7,567 nucleotides of DNA from Deltaproteobacteria bacterium (lineage in GTDB: Bacteria > Desulfobacterota > DSM-4660 > Desulfatiglandales > HGW-15), in the NCBI GenBank assembly GCA_016932235.1, contig JAFGDF010000267.1:1-7567 (forward strand), given 5' to 3'. The position numbers and the translations under genes were made by a program. This document shows, piece by piece, positions 3,003 to 7,567 of the stretch; position 1 is the first letter of the stretch; every line of letters begins with the position of its first letter. The notes under the pieces were generated by a model. The model saw only the letters and a program-made list of their open reading frames with translations. It was not told the DNA's origin and did not search any database.

Positions 3003-3168
3003 TCGCAGGATGGGTCTTGGATTCTGTGATCCCTGGCCCAGATCTGGATTAAACGTACGAATTTTTATCTCCCGTTTATGTGTGCATTATTTTAATTGAT
3101 ATGTCCACGGAAGTCGCGCCAGGGCGGGCAAGTCACAGAATGACCAAGTATTTTTTGGTATCCTGCGA
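3003..3168. repeat. 9-bp inverted repeat flanking the 127-bp palindromic element
   Basis: TCGCAGGAT at 3003-3011 and ATCCTGCGA at 3160-3168 are perfect inverted copies that enclose the element at 3018-3144. They are the same 9-mer that forms the hairpin after dnaB (2941-2963). The layout suggests one repeat nested within, or inserted into, another. No target-site duplication is obvious. Confidence 0.6.
3018..3144 (+). repeat. MITE-like palindromic element, copy A (127 bp)
   Basis: The ends are the inverted repeats ATTCTGTGA (3021-3029) and TCACAGAAT (3133-3141). An inner inverted pair is CCCTGG (3031-3036) and CCAGGG (3119-3124). The interior is AT-rich and has no credible ORF. A second copy lies in the opposite orientation at 5931-6060, with the same arm layout: 1 nt between outer and inner arm on one side and 8 nt on the other. 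The left ~25 nt and right ~32 nt are highly similar between copies, while the middle has diverged. There is no coding capacity, so any movement would need a transposase supplied elsewhere; that is inference. Confidence 0.7.
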
Positions 3169-3293: not shown

Positions 3294-4970
3294 ATAGACA
3301 GAGTTTACGGACAAATCAGCGGGCTCAAGGCCGGTTATCTTAAACGCCTCCAAGATTTCTACCGCAGAAGAATACCCCCAAATGAGATTGTCTCCAGGGA
3401 GATTACCCGCCAGATATGCAGTCTGTCATTTGAGATTAAAAGACAGATAGGCATAATGATTACCCGAAGGGGTCAGGTGACCCACGTGATAGTGGGTGAT
3501 AATAAGAGCATTCAAATACCGGAGCTGGGCAGATTCAGGTCCGGCCCCGGCCGGCTTAAGGGCCTTCGATATATCCATACGCATCTTCACGGTGAACCGG
3601 TTTCCAGGGAGGACATTACCGATATGGTGCTGCTGGGCCTTGATATGCTGGGCATGATACAGGTGGGCAGGGACGGCATACCGGCACAGATTTCATATTC
3701 GCACATACTTCCGGAAAACAGGAACGACAGGGGATGGGAAATTATCAGCGTGCCTGACATCGGCCGGTTAAATGTAAATTTTCAGGAACTGATAAATTCG
3801 CTCGAAGGTGAGCTTGCAAGGAAAGGAGGAGCAAAGAGAATACAGGGTTCGGAGAAGGCGGTGCTCGCGGGTGTCACGACAGTTTCGAGCGAGGCTGCCC
3901 GGGAATCATTGAACGAGTTGAAGGCCCTGGCAATTTCGAATAACCTGAGCGTTACGGATATGGTTGTTCAAAACATCAAGCAGGCGAATCCCAGATTCCT
4001 GATAGGAAAAGGCAAATTAAGCGAACTGATTCTTAAATGTATCCAGACCGGTTCAAACCTCCTGATATTTGATAATGAATTGACCCCCGCGCAGGTAAAA
4101 AGCCTGGCGGATTATACCGAGATGAAGATTATTGACAGGAGCCAGCTTATCCTTGATATCTTTTCGCGGAGAGCGGTCACGAGGGAAGGAAAGATACAGG
4201 TGGAGCTTGCCCAGTTGAAGTATCTCCTGCCCAGACTTGCCGCAAAAAACACGGCCATGTCAAGGTTGACGGGCGGTATAGGGGGCCGTGGACCCGGTGA
4301 GACAAAACTTGAGATCAATCGTCGAAGGGCGAGAGAAAGAGTTGCGAAACTCAACAGGGAGTTGAAAAAGATTGGAAAACAGCGGGAGGAAAGGAGACGC
4401 CTGAGAAGGTCCAGGGGGCTTCCTGTTATTTCTATTATAGGTTATACAAACGCCGGGAAATCAACCCTGCTGAATGCGTTGACTGAAAGCACTGTAGGTG
4501 CAGGCAGCCGCCTGTTTGAGACCCTGGATCCGTCCAGCAGGAGGCTCAGGTTTCCAAGAGAGAGAGAGGCAATAATCACTGATACGGTCGGTTTTATCAG
4601 AAACCTGCCGGAAAGCCTGATGGAGGCGTTTGAGGCGACACTGGAAGAACTGACGGACGCGGACCTCCTGCTGCACGTCGTTGATGCCGCGAGCCCGAGA
4701 ATGGATGAGCAGATCAGTGTCGTGGATGATGTACTTTTCCGGCTTGACCTCCATAAAAAGCCGACCATCCTTGTTTATAATAAAATTGATCTTCTCGGAT
4801 ACAATCAGGCAATGCCGCACCCCGGCGGAGTTGAGGGGGTTTGCATATCGGCGCTGGATCAGGGGACTTTCCATCTGCTGCTGGAGCGGATTGAAAAATT
4901 TTTATGGTCAAGGATACTACCGGACTCCGTCCGACATTTCTGCAACGACAGATCGTTGCCCTCAACATGA
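3294..4970 (+). CDS. hflX: ribosome-associated GTPase HflX, long form, start codon unresolved
   Basis: HflX is a GTPase that binds the 50S subunit and splits stalled or stress-hibernating ribosomes. In numbering from 3294 (558 residues), an N-terminal extension begins VYGQISGLKAGYLKRL (4-19), followed by YRRRIPP (23-29) and the HflX nucleotide-binding-like N-domain. The family signature GGIGGRGPGETKLE is at about 327-340, followed by a basic coiled coil. The GTPase domain has G1 GYTNAGKST (383-391), G2 threonine in FETLDP (about 408-413), G3 DTVGF (430-434), G4 NKID (496-499) and G5 SAL (519-521), so it should be active. The first in-frame ATG is at 3456 and would remove 54 conserved residues. 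The frame is open back to 3264 but has no ATG, GTG or TTG there. ATA 3294, with GGGAAA 6 nt upstream, fits the expected N-terminus best. A single missing G near 3281-3284 would instead place ATG 3280 in frame. Function is certain; the start is not. Confidence 0.93.
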   Translation: MDRVYGQISGLKAGYLKRLQDFYRRRIPPNEIVSREITRQICSLSFEIKRQIGIMITRRGQVTHVIVGDNKSIQIPELGRFRSGPGRLKGLRYIHTHLHGEPVSREDITDMVLLGLDMLGMIQVGRDGIPAQISYSHILPENRNDRGWEIISVPDIGRLNVNFQELINSLEGELARKGGAKRIQGSEKAVLAGVTTVSSEAARESLNELKALAISNNLSVTDMVVQNIKQANPRFLIGKGKLSELILKCIQTGSNLLIFDNELTPAQVKSLADYTEMKIIDRSQLILDIFSRRAVTREGKIQVELAQLKYLLPRLAAKNTAMSRLTGGIGGRGPGETKLEINRRRARERVAKLNRELKKIGKQREERRRLRRSRGLPVISIIGYTNAGKSTLLNALTESTVGAGSRLFETLDPSSRRLRFPREREAIITDTVGFIRNLPESLMEAFEATLEELTDADLLLHVVDAASPRMDEQISVVDDVLFRLDLHKKPTILVYNKIDLLGYNQAMPHPGGVEGVCISALDQGTFHLLLERIEKFLWSRILPDSVRHFCNDRSLPST

Positions 4971-5157: not shown

Positions 5158-5514
5158 AAATCCCCCTCGGGCCCCCTTTTCTAAAGATGGGTCCAGGGCC
5201 TGCCCGCCAGTGCCCGAATAGCTTTCTGATAAGCAATGTTCGCAGTAGCTGGAGATCACAATCCTAGTAAATGTATACAAGGCCGTGGCAGGCGGGGAGA
5301 TTTTAACGGCCATGACCCGTCTGCTTACGGGAACCTGCCCGTGCATTGCGCGCAGGCGGGCCACAGGCAGGCAAAGAGCGCCTCTCCATTATTAAATCCC
5401 TCCCGACCTCCTTTTCAAAGGGAGGAGAACCGGCAAGCCCTCCCACACTCACCTTTACAAAAGGGAGGAGAACCATATTCCTCCCCCTTTGAAAAGGGGG
5501 ACCGAGGGGGATTT
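5158..5514. repeat. 357-bp block bounded by 24-nt inverted repeats, with internal degenerate palindromes
   Basis: The left edge (5158-5181) and the reverse complement of the right edge (5491-5514) match at 23 of 24 positions (core AAATCCCCCTCGG, then a single G/T difference, then CCCCCTTTTC). Inside are further versions of the same palindrome: CCTCCTTT/AAAGGGAGG (5407-5425, one bulged G), CCTCCC/GGGAGG (5439-5468), and a perfect 9-bp hairpin TCCCCCTTT/AAAGGGGGA (5482-5501). The 15-mer AAAGGGAGGAGAACC is directly repeated at 5417-5431 and 5460-5474. No transposase or target duplication is seen. It reads as a cluster of one palindromic repeat family rather than as one intact transposon. Confidence 0.6.
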
Positions 5515-5909: not shown

Positions 5910-5930
5910 GACAGGTGAAAAGAAAGACTT

Positions 5931-6060
5931 TGTCATTCTGCGGCCTGCCCGCCCTGGTGCGACCTAAAGAGGTAAATAGCAATTGTACGGCTATAAACTG
6001 AGCAAAGGCTTTAATCAAACTTATGTTTATTATGGTCTGGGCCAGGGACCGCAGAATCCA
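5931..6060 (-). repeat. MITE-like palindromic element, copy B (130 bp, inverted relative to copy A)
   Basis: Read on the minus strand, it begins TGGATTCTGCGGTCCCTGG and ends GCAGAATGACA, closely matching the ends of copy A (3018-3144). Outer arms are ATTCTGCGG (5935-5943) and CCGCAGAAT (6049-6057). Inner arms are CCCTGG (5952-5957) and CCAGGG (6042-6047). The two outer-arm differences from copy A are compensatory. It ends about 50 nt before the pseudopilin start and lies within its presumed leader. Confidence 0.7.
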
Positions 6061-6111: not shown

Positions 6112-6708
6112 ATGAAAGAATGTAACAGCATAAAATCAGACAGCCAATTTGGTTTCTCCGCCAACCTGTCGGATAAAATCCGGCTGCCTGGCGGTTTTAC
6201 CCTTCTGGAATTAATAATTACCATTGCCATCCTCGGTATCATAGCAGGTGTGTCCGTGCCGTTGTTTTCGACCTGGCTGCCGGATTACAGGCTGAAAAGC
6301 GCCGCAATGGAATTGTTTTTAAATATCAAGCTGGCCAAGGCCATGGCGATCAAGTCTAATTGCCGTTACAGGGTCGTGTTTGATATCGGCGCCACTGGAT
6401 CATACAGCATCCAGGGAATGGATGGAAAAAAGGAAAGGGTCGTGGATTTTTCCAGGTATGATCCGGGGGGCAATATAGGATACGGATGCGGAAAAGCCTT
6501 TAAAAACGCTACAGTAACGGGAGGTCCTCTTCCTCCGGATTTTATCAGTTATGTTTCCAATAGCGCGACATTCAATCCTAGACACATGGGATCGGCCGGC
6601 TATGTCTATCTGACCAACAGCAAGGGTACCGCTTATGCAGTGGGCACATGGTTATCGGGAAATGCTGTTATTAAAAAATGGAATGAAGAAAACGGTTCAT
6701 GGGAATGA
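6112..6708 (+). CDS. GspH/FimT-type minor pseudopilin with class III signal peptide
   Basis: The product has 198 residues. A 28-residue, mostly polar leader ends at the prepilin-peptidase site G28|FTLLE, with glutamate at +5 of the mature protein (E33). The hydrophobic N-terminal helix follows (about 29-52, including IITIAILGIIAGVSVPLF). Next comes the GspH/FimT-like stretch LPDYRLKSAAMELFLNIKLAKAMAIK (about 56-81), where such proteins enter their beta-rich globular domain. Family members are minor pilins or pseudopilins that prime assembly of type IV pili or type II secretion pseudopili in the inner membrane. The leader is longer than the usual 5-15 residues. ATG 6112 directly follows an in-frame TGA (6109-6111), so it is the earliest start, but no clear Shine-Dalgarno precedes it. 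No other pilin gene is adjacent: a repeat array begins 18 nt downstream, so any partner genes lie outside or were separated. A specific symbol cannot be assigned. Confidence 0.88.
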   Translation: MKECNSIKSDSQFGFSANLSDKIRLPGGFTLLELIITIAILGIIAGVSVPLFSTWLPDYRLKSAAMELFLNIKLAKAMAIKSNCRYRVVFDIGATGSYSIQGMDGKKERVVDFSRYDPGGNIGYGCGKAFKNATVTGGPLPPDFISYVSNSATFNPRHMGSAGYVYLTNSKGTAYAVGTWLSGNAVIKKWNEENGSWE

Positions 6709-7059
6709 GGAAATCGTACATAAAACGAATATCCAATAACGAATAATGAATATCGAAGGAAGAGAAGAAGCCAAGAACTTCATAATTCGACATTTCTTAT
6801 TCGATATTTTACATTCTGTTTTAAATAAAAGACGAATATCCAATCATGAATGATGAATATCCAATGTCGAAGGAAGACAAGAGGATTTAGAAACTTCATA
6901 GTTCGATATTCCTTATTCGAAATTCTACATTCGGTTTTAAATAAAAGATGAATATCCAATAATGAATGATGAATATCCAATGTCGAAGGGAAAGAAGATA
7001 GATTTAATACTTCATAATTCGACATTTCTTATTCGATATTCTACATTCTGTTTTAAATA

Positions 7060-7518
7060 GAATATCCAAAAACGAATGAGGAATAATAAATGCCCCTGTA
7101 TGACAAGAGGTATGACATTGAGGATCGTCTGATAGATTTTGCTGTGAGAATAATCAAATTTTCCGGATTATTGCCGAAAACAAAAATCGGAAGTCACATA
7201 GCAAACCAGATTATTCGTTGTGGAACTTCCCCGGCACCCAATTATGGGGAAGCACAAGGAGCGGAATCCCGATCTGATTTTATTCATAAAATGAAAATAT
7301 GCTTAAAAGAGCTGCGTGAAACTAAAGTATGGCTAAAAATGGTTTTGAAAGCAAATTTAATAAACCCGCAGTTGGAAGTTGAGCCTTTGATTCAGGAAAA
7401 TGATCAACTAATATCTATATTTGTCACGAGCATTAAGACTTCAAAAGAGAAGAAACCAAGAACTTCATAATTCGACATTCCTTATTCGATATTCTACATT
7501 CGATTTTAAATAAAATAA
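7060..7518 (+). mobile_element. putative gene-bearing repeat unit carrying a four-helix-bundle ORF
   Basis: This is one unit of the array, enlarged from ~110 to 459 bp by a complete ORF. The left arm (7060-7089) follows the other units up to the start codon, which aligns with an ATG at the same place in unit 3 (6980). The right arm resumes at about 7445: the stretch 7445-7479 matches unit 1 (6760-6794) at 34 of 35 positions, so the last codons and the stop of the ORF are repeat sequence. No transposase is present. Calling it mobile is inference from the repeat boundaries and copy number. Confidence 0.45.
7090..7470 (+). CDS. four-helix-bundle protein, 23S rRNA intervening-sequence (S23) family
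   Basis: The product has 126 residues, the usual size for this family (PF05635/TIGR02436). The core pattern is clear: IANQIIRCGTSPAPNYGEAQ (about 40-59), then GAESRSDFIHKMKICLKELRETKVWLKM (about 60-87). Helices are separated by short turns, and the tail is lysine-rich. Relatives are encoded in intervening sequences within 23S rRNA genes and as free-standing genes; a related fold is the Avd subunit of diversity-generating retroelements. The biochemical function of the free-standing proteins is not established, and nucleic-acid binding is an inference. The start is ATG 7090, with Shine-Dalgarno GAGGA at 7078-7082, 7 nt upstream, lying inside the repeat arm. The C-terminal residues (roughly EKKPRTS) and stop are encoded by repeat sequence. 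No reverse transcriptase or rRNA is visible nearby. Confidence 0.9.
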   Translation: MPLYDKRYDIEDRLIDFAVRIIKFSGLLPKTKIGSHIANQIIRCGTSPAPNYGEAQGAESRSDFIHKMKICLKELRETKVWLKMVLKANLINPQLEVEPLIQENDQLISIFVTSIKTSKEKKPRTS

Positions 7519-7567
7519 GAATATCCAATATCCAATGATGAATAATGAATATCGAAGGAAGAGAAGA

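What the first reader, a model, noticed from the sequence alone, without database searches (positions are those of the whole stretch)
7060..7518. Four-helix-bundle gene fits exactly between the arms of one repeat unit
Seen: in unit 4 the repeat runs right up to the start codon, and ATG 7090 aligns with the ATG at 6980 of unit 3 (16 nt of aligned arm before each). The repeat then resumes near 7445 and supplies the last ~8 codons and the TAA. A GA-TG-A to GA-GG-A difference in this arm creates the Shine-Dalgarno. Known: this protein family occurs in 23S rRNA intervening sequences, which are flanked by complementary arms. Inference: gene plus arms is a discrete element, perhaps spreading as DNA or RNA, with the arms serving both as expression signals and as ends.
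Basis: partly seen in the sequence, partly recalled or inferred. Interest (0 to 1): 0.75.

Follow-up and report, generated by a model that had tools for sequence, protein, structure and literature searches.

The report
Heptamer-hairpin element carrying a four-helix-bundle gene
A tiny gene for a four-helix-bundle protein of unknown function sits, start to stop, in the loop of a hairpin whose two arms are built from repeated 7-letter words; the same design recurs in many bacteria and looks like a small selfish element related to the sequences that interrupt some bacterial ribosomal RNA genes.

Summary
ORF 7090-7470 (PF05635/TIGR02436, "S23" family) lies exactly between complementary arms; the left arm holds the Shine-Dalgarno, the right arm about the last 8 codons and the stop. 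(2) The word follows the protein subfamily (Mantel r 0.64). (3) Filled and empty sites in Nostoc plasmids show the arm-to-arm unit as the acquired piece, replacing 188 or 328 nt, without target duplication (two events). (4) ORF-less hairpins such as window units 1-3 are deletion forms. (5) Among 118 genomes of one phylum, heptamer arrays track S23 copy number (3/48, 13/33, 14/20, 16/17 genomes for 0, 1-2, 3-5, 6+ copies); three other families lose most of their link once S23 is allowed for. Best reading: a REPIN/RAYT-like selfish hairpin family whose coding form carries S23, 23S rRNA IVS being its rRNA-inserted form. How it copies itself, and whether S23 acts on the arms, is not shown; relatedness was not corrected for.

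The parts
7058..7090 (+). left arm of unit 4 (heptamer words), complementary to 7464-7496; reaches the start codon
   Evidence: (I6)
7078..7082 (+). Shine-Dalgarno GAGGA inside the left arm, 7 nt before the ATG
   Evidence: family equivalent AAGGA in AACAAGGAAT
7090..7470 (+). CDS of 126 aa, four-helix-bundle S23 / 23S_rRNA_IVP protein
   Evidence: PF05635 E 8.6e-14, TIGR02436 E 4e-24; 82% identical to the nearest relative
7445..7470 (+). about the last 8 codons and TAA, supplied by the repeat (also present in ORF-less units)
7464..7496 (+). right arm of unit 4, complementary to 7058-7090
   Evidence: (I6)
6721..6823 (+). unit 1: ORF-less hairpin (arms about 6721-6757 and 6786-6823); keeps the end of the gene but no ATG
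6834..6937 (+). unit 2: ORF-less hairpin, weaker arms, keeps ATGTCGAAGGAA and ACTTCATAG remnants of the gene's ends
6950..7053 (+). unit 3: ORF-less hairpin (arms 6964-6987 and 7018-7041), keeps the ATG (6980) and ACTTCATAA of the coding form
7517..7567 (+). left arm of a fifth unit, cut off by the end of the window
   Evidence: D2

Best explanation
The unit is a small selfish hairpin element. Its ends are two inverted arrays of a lineage-specific, usually 7-nt word; the complete form carries a single gene, S23, in the loop and uses the left array for its ribosome-binding site and the right array for its last codons and stop (shown for this subfamily). ORF-less hairpins such as window units 1-3 are internal-deletion derivatives (shown for those that keep first or last codons). 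Units enter new sites arm-to-arm, replacing some target DNA without a target duplication (shown at two Nostoc loci). Inferred: S23, a member of a family with a pentameric ring structure, binds the heptamer hairpin of its own word as RNA or single-stranded DNA and promotes its copying in cis and in trans, as RAYT does for REPINs; 23S rRNA intervening sequences are the copies that landed in rRNA genes. The chemistry of copying is unknown and may be borrowed from the host.
For: Arms at S23 genes: 68 of 77 loci above the 99th percentile of shuffles; 118 of 156 with score >=15, 0 shuffled. Heptamer periodicity at lags 7, 14, 21 in both flanks, at most +3% 1 kb away. Specific to S23: 52 of 68 vs 8 of 372 ORFs; of the 8, two are PF05635 and one is a Y1 transposase. 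Arm word tracks protein subfamily: Mantel r 0.637, 0 of 999 permutations, N=125. Filled/empty: L143 against L155-L160, and L146/L149/L164 against L161/L162. Dispersed copies: four 91-92% identical copies in one Brocadia-relative genome (G019), plus internal-deletion and arm-arm forms in others. Genome-level association: Fisher p 2.6e-10, dose-response, Spearman 0.67; partial 0.52 after allowing for Y1 transposase, ParE and GxxExxY. Word patterns: GGCATAG in 8 and GAATATC in 13 of 20 S23-bearing genomes, 0 of 10 S23-free ones. The Coxiella 23S IVS has a 28-bp stem and tandem heptamers next to its S23p ATG (PMC4990558, passages).
Against: 38 of 156 S23 loci lack arms at that threshold; in the group L081-L110 only 16 of 32 have them. 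G001 has 8 S23 matches but 1 period-7 array in a 400-kb sample; G002 has a GAATATC-type gene (L018) but no GAATATC pattern match. The own-genome word-match test was weak: best score in the own genome for 3 of 14 arms. In G019 the copies lie inside an outer inverted repeat, so another element may have moved them. GxxExxY genes have similar arms without heptamers, so arms alone do not need S23. Period-8 arrays also rise in S23-rich genomes, in smaller number (7 vs 1). Xanthomonas heptamer arrays mostly keep their place between species (PMC4692102, passages). Only two independent replacement events were read. Relatedness of the 118 genomes is unknown to me and uncorrected. No catalytic site is known in S23 (recalled).
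Confidence: 0.62

Rival explanations
1. Passenger model: S23 genes and their arms are cargo moved by ordinary transposons or recombination; the arms are only translation, processing or autoregulation signals for S23.
For: The four G019 copies share an outer inverted repeat CATAAGCGCTAAG..CTTAGCGCTTATG, with apparent 11-12-nt direct repeats in 2 of 4 copies, by eye. SD and stop lie in the arms. S23 is co-oriented with its upstream neighbour within 300 nt in 60 of 65 (L001-L080) and 46 of 50 (other chromosomal) loci, against 390 of 523 adjacent ORF pairs within 1 kb in the same loci, as expected of a gene living on read-through transcription.
Against: L003, L143 and L146, for example, show no such outer repeat, and the Nostoc junctions fall at the heptamer arms themselves. 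Does not explain why ORF-less arrays elsewhere in the genome rise with S23 number.
Confidence: 0.16
2. Hot-spot model: heptamer hairpins pre-exist and S23 genes insert into their loops, so arms belong to the target and not to the element.
For: Arrays far outnumber S23 genes: 107 period-7/14 arrays in 1.03 Mb of sampled S23-bearing genomes, a sample in which no S23 frame was found at all.
Against: The empty Nostoc sites have no heptamer array at the junction. Arm word follows protein subfamily across phyla. Window units 1-3 and L197/L198 keep first and/or last S23 codons.
Confidence: 0.1
3. The heptamer arrays are ordinary simple-sequence repeats made by slippage in tolerant genomes; S23 correlates only through lineage or general repeat richness.
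For: Heptamer number differs between near-identical plasmids (L144, L145) and one locus has a very long array (L148). Phylogeny is uncorrected. Period-8 arrays also rise (7 vs 1).
Against: The excess is mainly of period 7 and its double (59 vs 4 arrays at threshold 12); periods 6, 9 and 10 are level and 12 and 15 are lower in S23-rich genomes. Y1 transposase and ParE counts lose their association once S23 is allowed for. Inverted pairing around one gene family is not a slippage product.
Confidence: 0.08
4. The repeated units in this window are a local tandem duplication or assembly artefact.
For: Units are tandem at 116-nt spacing; no genome is held for the window, so the assembly cannot be checked.
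Against: Copies differ by 13-37% and the same kind of unit occurs in unrelated assemblies and in complete plasmid records.
Confidence: 0.03

Closest known systems
23S rRNA intervening sequences (IVS) with an S23p ORF (Coxiella, Leptospira)
   Same: S23-family ORF in the loop of complementary arms; in Coxiella, heptameric direct repeats just before the S23p ATG with strain-variable copy number (PMC4990558, passages and Discussion)
   Different: This unit is intergenic behind a pseudopilin gene, not in rRNA; it has ORF-less sister hairpins in tandem and a conserved SD
REPIN/RAYT systems (recalled)
   Same: One small gene flanked by inverted short repeats, ORF-less hairpins dispersed in the same genomes, family-specific repeat sequence
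   Different: The gene is a four-helix bundle without a known nuclease, not a Y1 HUH transposase; arms are heptamer arrays; array counts are not explained by Y1 transposase counts
Cyanobacterial STRR heptanucleotide repeats (recalled) and Xanthomonas/Nostoc GGGNATC heptamers (PMC4692102, passages)
   Same: 7-nt tandem arrays, mostly intergenic, often in inverted pairs in Xanthomonas
   Different: Described there without a function or an associated gene; here tied to S23 in cis and by genome-wide counts
GxxExxY (TIGR04256) genes
   Same: Short genes with inverted arms of repeated words: 15 of 30 loci score >15, none of their shuffles
   Different: Unrelated protein; weak 8-9-nt periodicity instead of 7
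Avd of diversity-generating retroelements (recalled)
   Same: Related four-helix-bundle protein that binds nucleic acid (recalled); one S23 protein here (L063) also touches the bAvd model below its cut-off
   Different: No search for a reverse transcriptase or template/variable repeats was run

Membership tests
S23 / 23S_rRNA_IVP protein family | match above the curated cut-off of PF05635 and TIGR02436 | tested here: met
   52.1 vs 33.8 bits and 84.9 vs 24 bits
23S rRNA IVS | lies inside a 23S rRNA gene | tested here: not met
   no Rfam match at gathering score anywhere in the window; the gene upstream is a pseudopilin; the window ends 97 nt after the stop
23S rRNA IVS | complementary ends enclosing an S23 ORF | tested here: met
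23S rRNA IVS | excision by RNase III | not testable with these tools
   needs RNA work
REPIN/RAYT | Y1 transposase gene in the unit | tested here: not met
   the only Pfam match of the gene is PF05635
REPIN/RAYT | dispersed ORF-less inverted pairs sharing the gene's flanking repeat | tested here: met
   in relatives; word counts. In samples the own-genome word match was weak and only 4 of 35 arrays had a strong inverted partner
MITE or IS element | target-site duplication | tested here: not met
   two Nostoc empty-site comparisons show replacement without duplication; direct repeats only around the outer repeat in 2 of 4 G019 copies
MITE or IS element | terminal inverted repeats | tested here: met
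STRR heptanucleotide repeats | tandem 7-nt period | tested here: met
   for the family flanks; the window has a period-7 segment in a flank of its S23 gene
DGR accessory Avd | adjacent reverse transcriptase and TR/VR repeats | not tested
   no RT search was run

The most novel reading that the evidence does not exclude
S23 proteins are the makers or keepers of a whole class of orphan bacterial repeats: each S23 pentamer reads one 7-nt word per subunit along a hairpin arm (five words, 35 nt, against a measured median arm of 33 nt), with the word co-evolving with the protein, and so copies hairpins of its own word around the genome. It would be a self-spreading system without its own nuclease or polymerase, of which ribosomal intervening sequences and cyanobacterial and Xanthomonas heptamer repeats are all products.
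Probability: 0.3. Interest if true: 0.93.

Novelty: new variant of a known kind. Interest (0 to 1): 0.78.

Why it matters
It joins three loose ends: the S23 family without known function (7,996 hits among the 8,000 candidates scored), the origin of 23S rRNA intervening sequences, and genome-wide heptamer repeats whose role is open. It gives a directly testable claim (S23 binds and spreads hairpins of its own 7-nt word) and may explain why S23 genes turn up as passengers in defence and CRISPR operons, as seen here (L144, L145, L152) and reported for 18 genes in cas loci (PMC3936711, passages).

Tried and rejected
Tandem-duplication-only reading: rejected because the unit recurs across phyla. 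23S rRNA location: no rRNA in the window. Own-genome word test with sampled stretches: weak, 3 of 14. Empty site for L003 in G020: not clean, since that place holds a different repeat. Orthologues of the upstream pseudopilin (8 loci fetched, 51% identity at most): no heptamer array seen by eye in the 420 nt downstream, but too distant to call empty sites. Inverted-partner search for sampled arrays of G001/G002: 4 of 35 segments have a partner >=15 (control 1 of 35), so most sampled arrays are solitary or weak hairpins. GxxExxY on plasmids: 8 records found, flanks not read. S23 in phage records: 2 of 50,697, not read. HNH reading of the stretch displaced in L155: the annotated CDS has no Pfam match. 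Paper searches for a prior link between heptamer arrays and S23 genes; among what I saw, only the Coxiella IVS paper mentions both; most subscription papers and bioRxiv preprints are not held.

Full report
WHAT IS THERE. The window (7,567 nt; the nearest named protein relatives are from Desulfobacterales) ends in a tandem array of ~116-nt units behind a pseudopilin-like gene (6112-6708). Units 1-3 are ORF-less hairpins. Unit 4 holds a 126-codon gene, 7090-7470, of the S23 / 23S_rRNA_IVP family (PF05635 E 8.6e-14, TIGR02436 E 4e-24). Its arms 7058-7090 and 7464-7496 are 79% complementary over 33 nt and fold far better than with a shuffled arm. The repeat stops at the ATG and resumes for about the last 8 codons and the stop. 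A fifth unit starts at 7517. Both arms read as 7-nt words.

THE ARMS BELONG TO THE GENE FAMILY. A scan of genome contigs with an alignment of 24 homologues gave 323 confirmed places; the tool kept the best 80 and I used all 80. Their titles name Desulfobacterota, Brocadia and other Planctomycetota, Nitrospirota, Cloacimonadota, Kiritimatiellota, Verrucomicrobiota and others. With the window that makes 81, of which 77 had enough flank; 68 of 77 have complementary flanks above the 99th percentile of shuffles (12.0). Mean score is 22.6 within a locus, 14.3 between the left flank of one locus and the right flank of another, 8.2 shuffled and 8.3 for flanks farther out (64 loci). Adding S23 loci given by the family searches (30 best-scoring loci each, a part of their matches) and 14 of 24 plasmid records gives 162 S23 frames, 156 with both flanks, no duplicates: 118 have arms >=15 (shuffled 0) and 88 a period-7 array in a flank (shuffled 0). 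By source: 66 of 80, 16 of 32 (L081-L110), 14 of 14 (plasmids), 21 of 29 (L245-L274) and the window. Arms have a median of 33 nt, quartiles 28 and 42, n=119.

SPECIFICITY. Of 483 non-overlapping ORFs of 90 codons or more in the 80 loci and window, 440 had enough flank. Arms >=16 occur at 52 of 68 S23 ORFs and 8 of 372 others. Of the 8, two are PF05635 proteins that my first profile missed (L036, L063), one is a Y1 transposase with REP-like arms (L017), one a BRO-N protein (L073, framed by the same word as the S23 gene of that locus), three lie next to an S23 gene and share its arm, and one is a short ORF with another word. GxxExxY genes, present in 12 of 12 genomes examined, also have arms (15 of 30 loci >15, shuffled 0) but with weak 8-9-nt periodicity, so a second, unrelated family uses a similar layout.

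HEPTAMERS AND WORDS. Autocorrelation in the flanks of the 80 loci and window peaks at lags 7 (+15%), 14 and 21 (+10 to +12%) on both sides; flanks 1 kb upstream show at most +3%. The word varies: GAATATC for the window type, others built on GGGATTGA, AGGTCAGA, GGCATAG or CGCAATT; some are nearer 8 nt. Sharing of arm 6-mers follows protein identity (Mantel r 0.637, 0 of 999 permutations, N=125 with arms >=14), and arms are essentially unrelated below 50% identity.

FILLED AND EMPTY SITES. In Nostoc plasmids L143 carries the unit where six paralogous plasmid loci (L155-L160) do not: the arm-to-arm unit (L143 2444-2865) replaces 188 nt (L155 1842-2029), and the arms start and end within a few bases of the junctions. 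L146, L149 and L164 carry one in a DNA cytosine methyltransferase gene that is whole in L161 and L162; it replaces about 328 nt. Neither shows a target duplication (by eye). Since the gene is whole without it, the filled state is the derived one there. The three filled methyltransferase sites share one event, so I count two independent events. An ORF-less arm-loop-arm unit in L146 (about 3530-3692) is missing in L164.

COPIES AND DERIVATIVES. A 3.1-kb query around the unit of Brocadia pituitae (L003) matched 17 of 20 genomes, the source genome included; many matches are to arms only. One genome (G019) has four 91-92% identical copies with sharp ends; three span element positions 1-463 and one 1-450. 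Internal-deletion forms share a breakpoint in G017 and G014, and arm-arm forms occur in several genomes. L197/L198 (nearly the same flanks, so one case) and window units 2 and 3 keep both the first codons (ATG TCG AAG G) and the last (ACTTCATA), unit 1 the last only; these are deletion products of the coding form. In G019 the copies lie inside an outer inverted repeat, with apparent direct repeats at 2 of 4 copies, so there another mobile element may have moved them.

GENOME-WIDE LINK. Stretches of 400 kb each from G001 and G002 hold 1 and 26 period-7/14 arrays (threshold 15; shuffled 0). In one phylum, 70 of 118 genomes have a PF05635 match at E <= 0.001 (66 over the cut-off). I sampled the first 20 kb of contigs 1 and 2 of 20 of the 48 genomes without and 20 of the 25 genomes with at least five matches (545 and 626 kb; three of the stretches asked for did not exist, many were shorter): 4 against 59 period-7/14 arrays at threshold 12, 1 against 31 at threshold 15. 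Period 8 also rises (1 against 7), periods 6, 9 and 10 are about level, 12 and 15 are lower in the S23-rich set. No S23 frame fell in the S23-rich or G002 samples, so none of the 59 and 48 arrays there is an arm of one: the arrays are dispersed. Whole-genome matches to GATTNNNx4 plus its reversed form (also a heptamer) over all 118 genomes: at least 4 matches in 3 of 48 genomes without S23, 13 of 33 with 1-2, 14 of 20 with 3-5, 16 of 17 with 6 or more; Fisher p 2.6e-10 for presence/absence, Spearman 0.67; GATT alone 1 of 48 against 29 of 70. Other families in the same genomes: Y1 transposase Spearman 0.44, falling to 0.11 given S23; ParE 0.36 to 0.00; GxxExxY 0.44 to 0.16; S23 keeps 0.52 given all three. 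The pattern for GGCATAG is found in 8 of 20 S23-bearing genomes (up to 361 matches), that for GAATATC in 13 of 20 (up to 88; 12 of the 20 were chosen for having a window-type gene), and both in 0 of 10 S23-free ones. Against: G001 is S23-rich yet array-poor in its sample, and the own-genome word test was weak (3 of 14).

TRANSCRIPTION. S23 is co-oriented with its upstream neighbour within 300 nt in 60 of 65 (L001-L080), 46 of 50 (other chromosomal) and 7 of 7 (plasmid) cases, and with its downstream neighbour in 50 of 61, 28 of 37 and 7 of 8; 390 of 523 adjacent ORF pairs within 1 kb in the same loci agree. It seems to live on read-through, as a 23S IVS does.

MECHANISM. Shown: the unit, its arms, its use of arms for SD and stop, its presence/absence, its derivatives, the genome-wide association. 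Inferred: S23 binds heptamer hairpins of its own word and helps to copy them. Bearing on this: pI 9.4 here, above 8 in 91 of 157 relatives; the one solved relative found by sequence, 2rld, has five chains; the Xanthomonas homologue is a toroidal homopentamer (PMC4990558, passage). Unknown: the copying chemistry.

COMPARISON. PMC4990558 (passages and Discussion) reports for the Coxiella IVS a 28-bp stem around the S23p ORF and tandem GACAGAT heptamers before its ATG, with copy number varying by strain; it also argues that S23p is probably not made in that organism. PMC4692102 (passages) reports 186 and 183 heptamer arrays in two Xanthomonas genomes, with 70 and 75 inverted pairs, no known function, and no general association with mobile elements; 90% of them sit between the same genes in both species, which speaks against recent movement there. 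PMC4679880 (passages) describes TAACTGA heptamers in Beggiatoaceae. PMC11270868 (passages) finds the family scattered over several insertion sites in CPR 16S and 23S genes. REPIN/RAYT, STRR and Avd are compared from memory. In my nine paper searches I saw no paper that ties heptamer arrays in general to S23 genes.

CHECK. 

Noticed in passing
window 5158-5184 / 5488-5514 and 5398-5429 / 5478-5509: Another intergenic repeat family: inverted C-rich/G-rich blocks (AAATCCCCCTCGGGCC.. / ..GACCGAGGGGGATTT), 93% and 75% complementary.
   Followed up: no
window 3113-3156 / 5920-5963 and 3018-3042 / 6036-6060: Two long-range inverted repeats (84% over 44 nt, 92% over 25 nt) in two different intergenic regions, a further dispersed repeat.
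   Followed up: no
L111-L140: GxxExxY genes are also framed by inverted arms of repeated words, with 8-9-nt rather than 7-nt periodicity; 12 of 12 genomes examined have both families.
   Followed up: partly
L144 and L145 around 2480-2839; L152 2498-2866: S23 units sit inside defence operons: after DISARM drmD in two Planktothrix plasmids and between csx2 and cas1 in a Pseudanabaena plasmid.
   Followed up: partly
L155 1842-2029: The stretch replaced in L143 reads, in one frame, with a CxxC..HH..CxxCH pattern like an HNH nuclease (motif recalled; translation); the annotated CDS 1933-2160 has no Pfam match.
   Followed up: partly
L148, downstream of 2905: A very long run of CGACTTG-type heptamers behind an S23 gene, an apparent expansion.
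   Followed up: no
L036 7420-7777: A PF05635 gene whose arms have a much longer repeated word (GTCATTAG..GCCTTCGGC..), unlike the heptamers.
   Followed up: partly
L073 1608-2445: A BRO-N-domain gene framed by arms of the same word as the S23 gene of that locus: a possible second cargo.
   Followed up: partly
L186-L189 outer flanks: Outer inverted repeat CATAAGCGCTAAG / CTTAGCGCTTATG, with a similar one in some Desulfobacteraceae loci (L002, L007, L017); looks like a separate mobile element carrying the S23 unit.
   Followed up: partly
L185 (G020:C233), reverse strand: The orthologous place of the L003 unit in G020 holds a different repeat, GTAGGGGCGAAGCATTTGCCC with an inverted partner.
   Followed up: no
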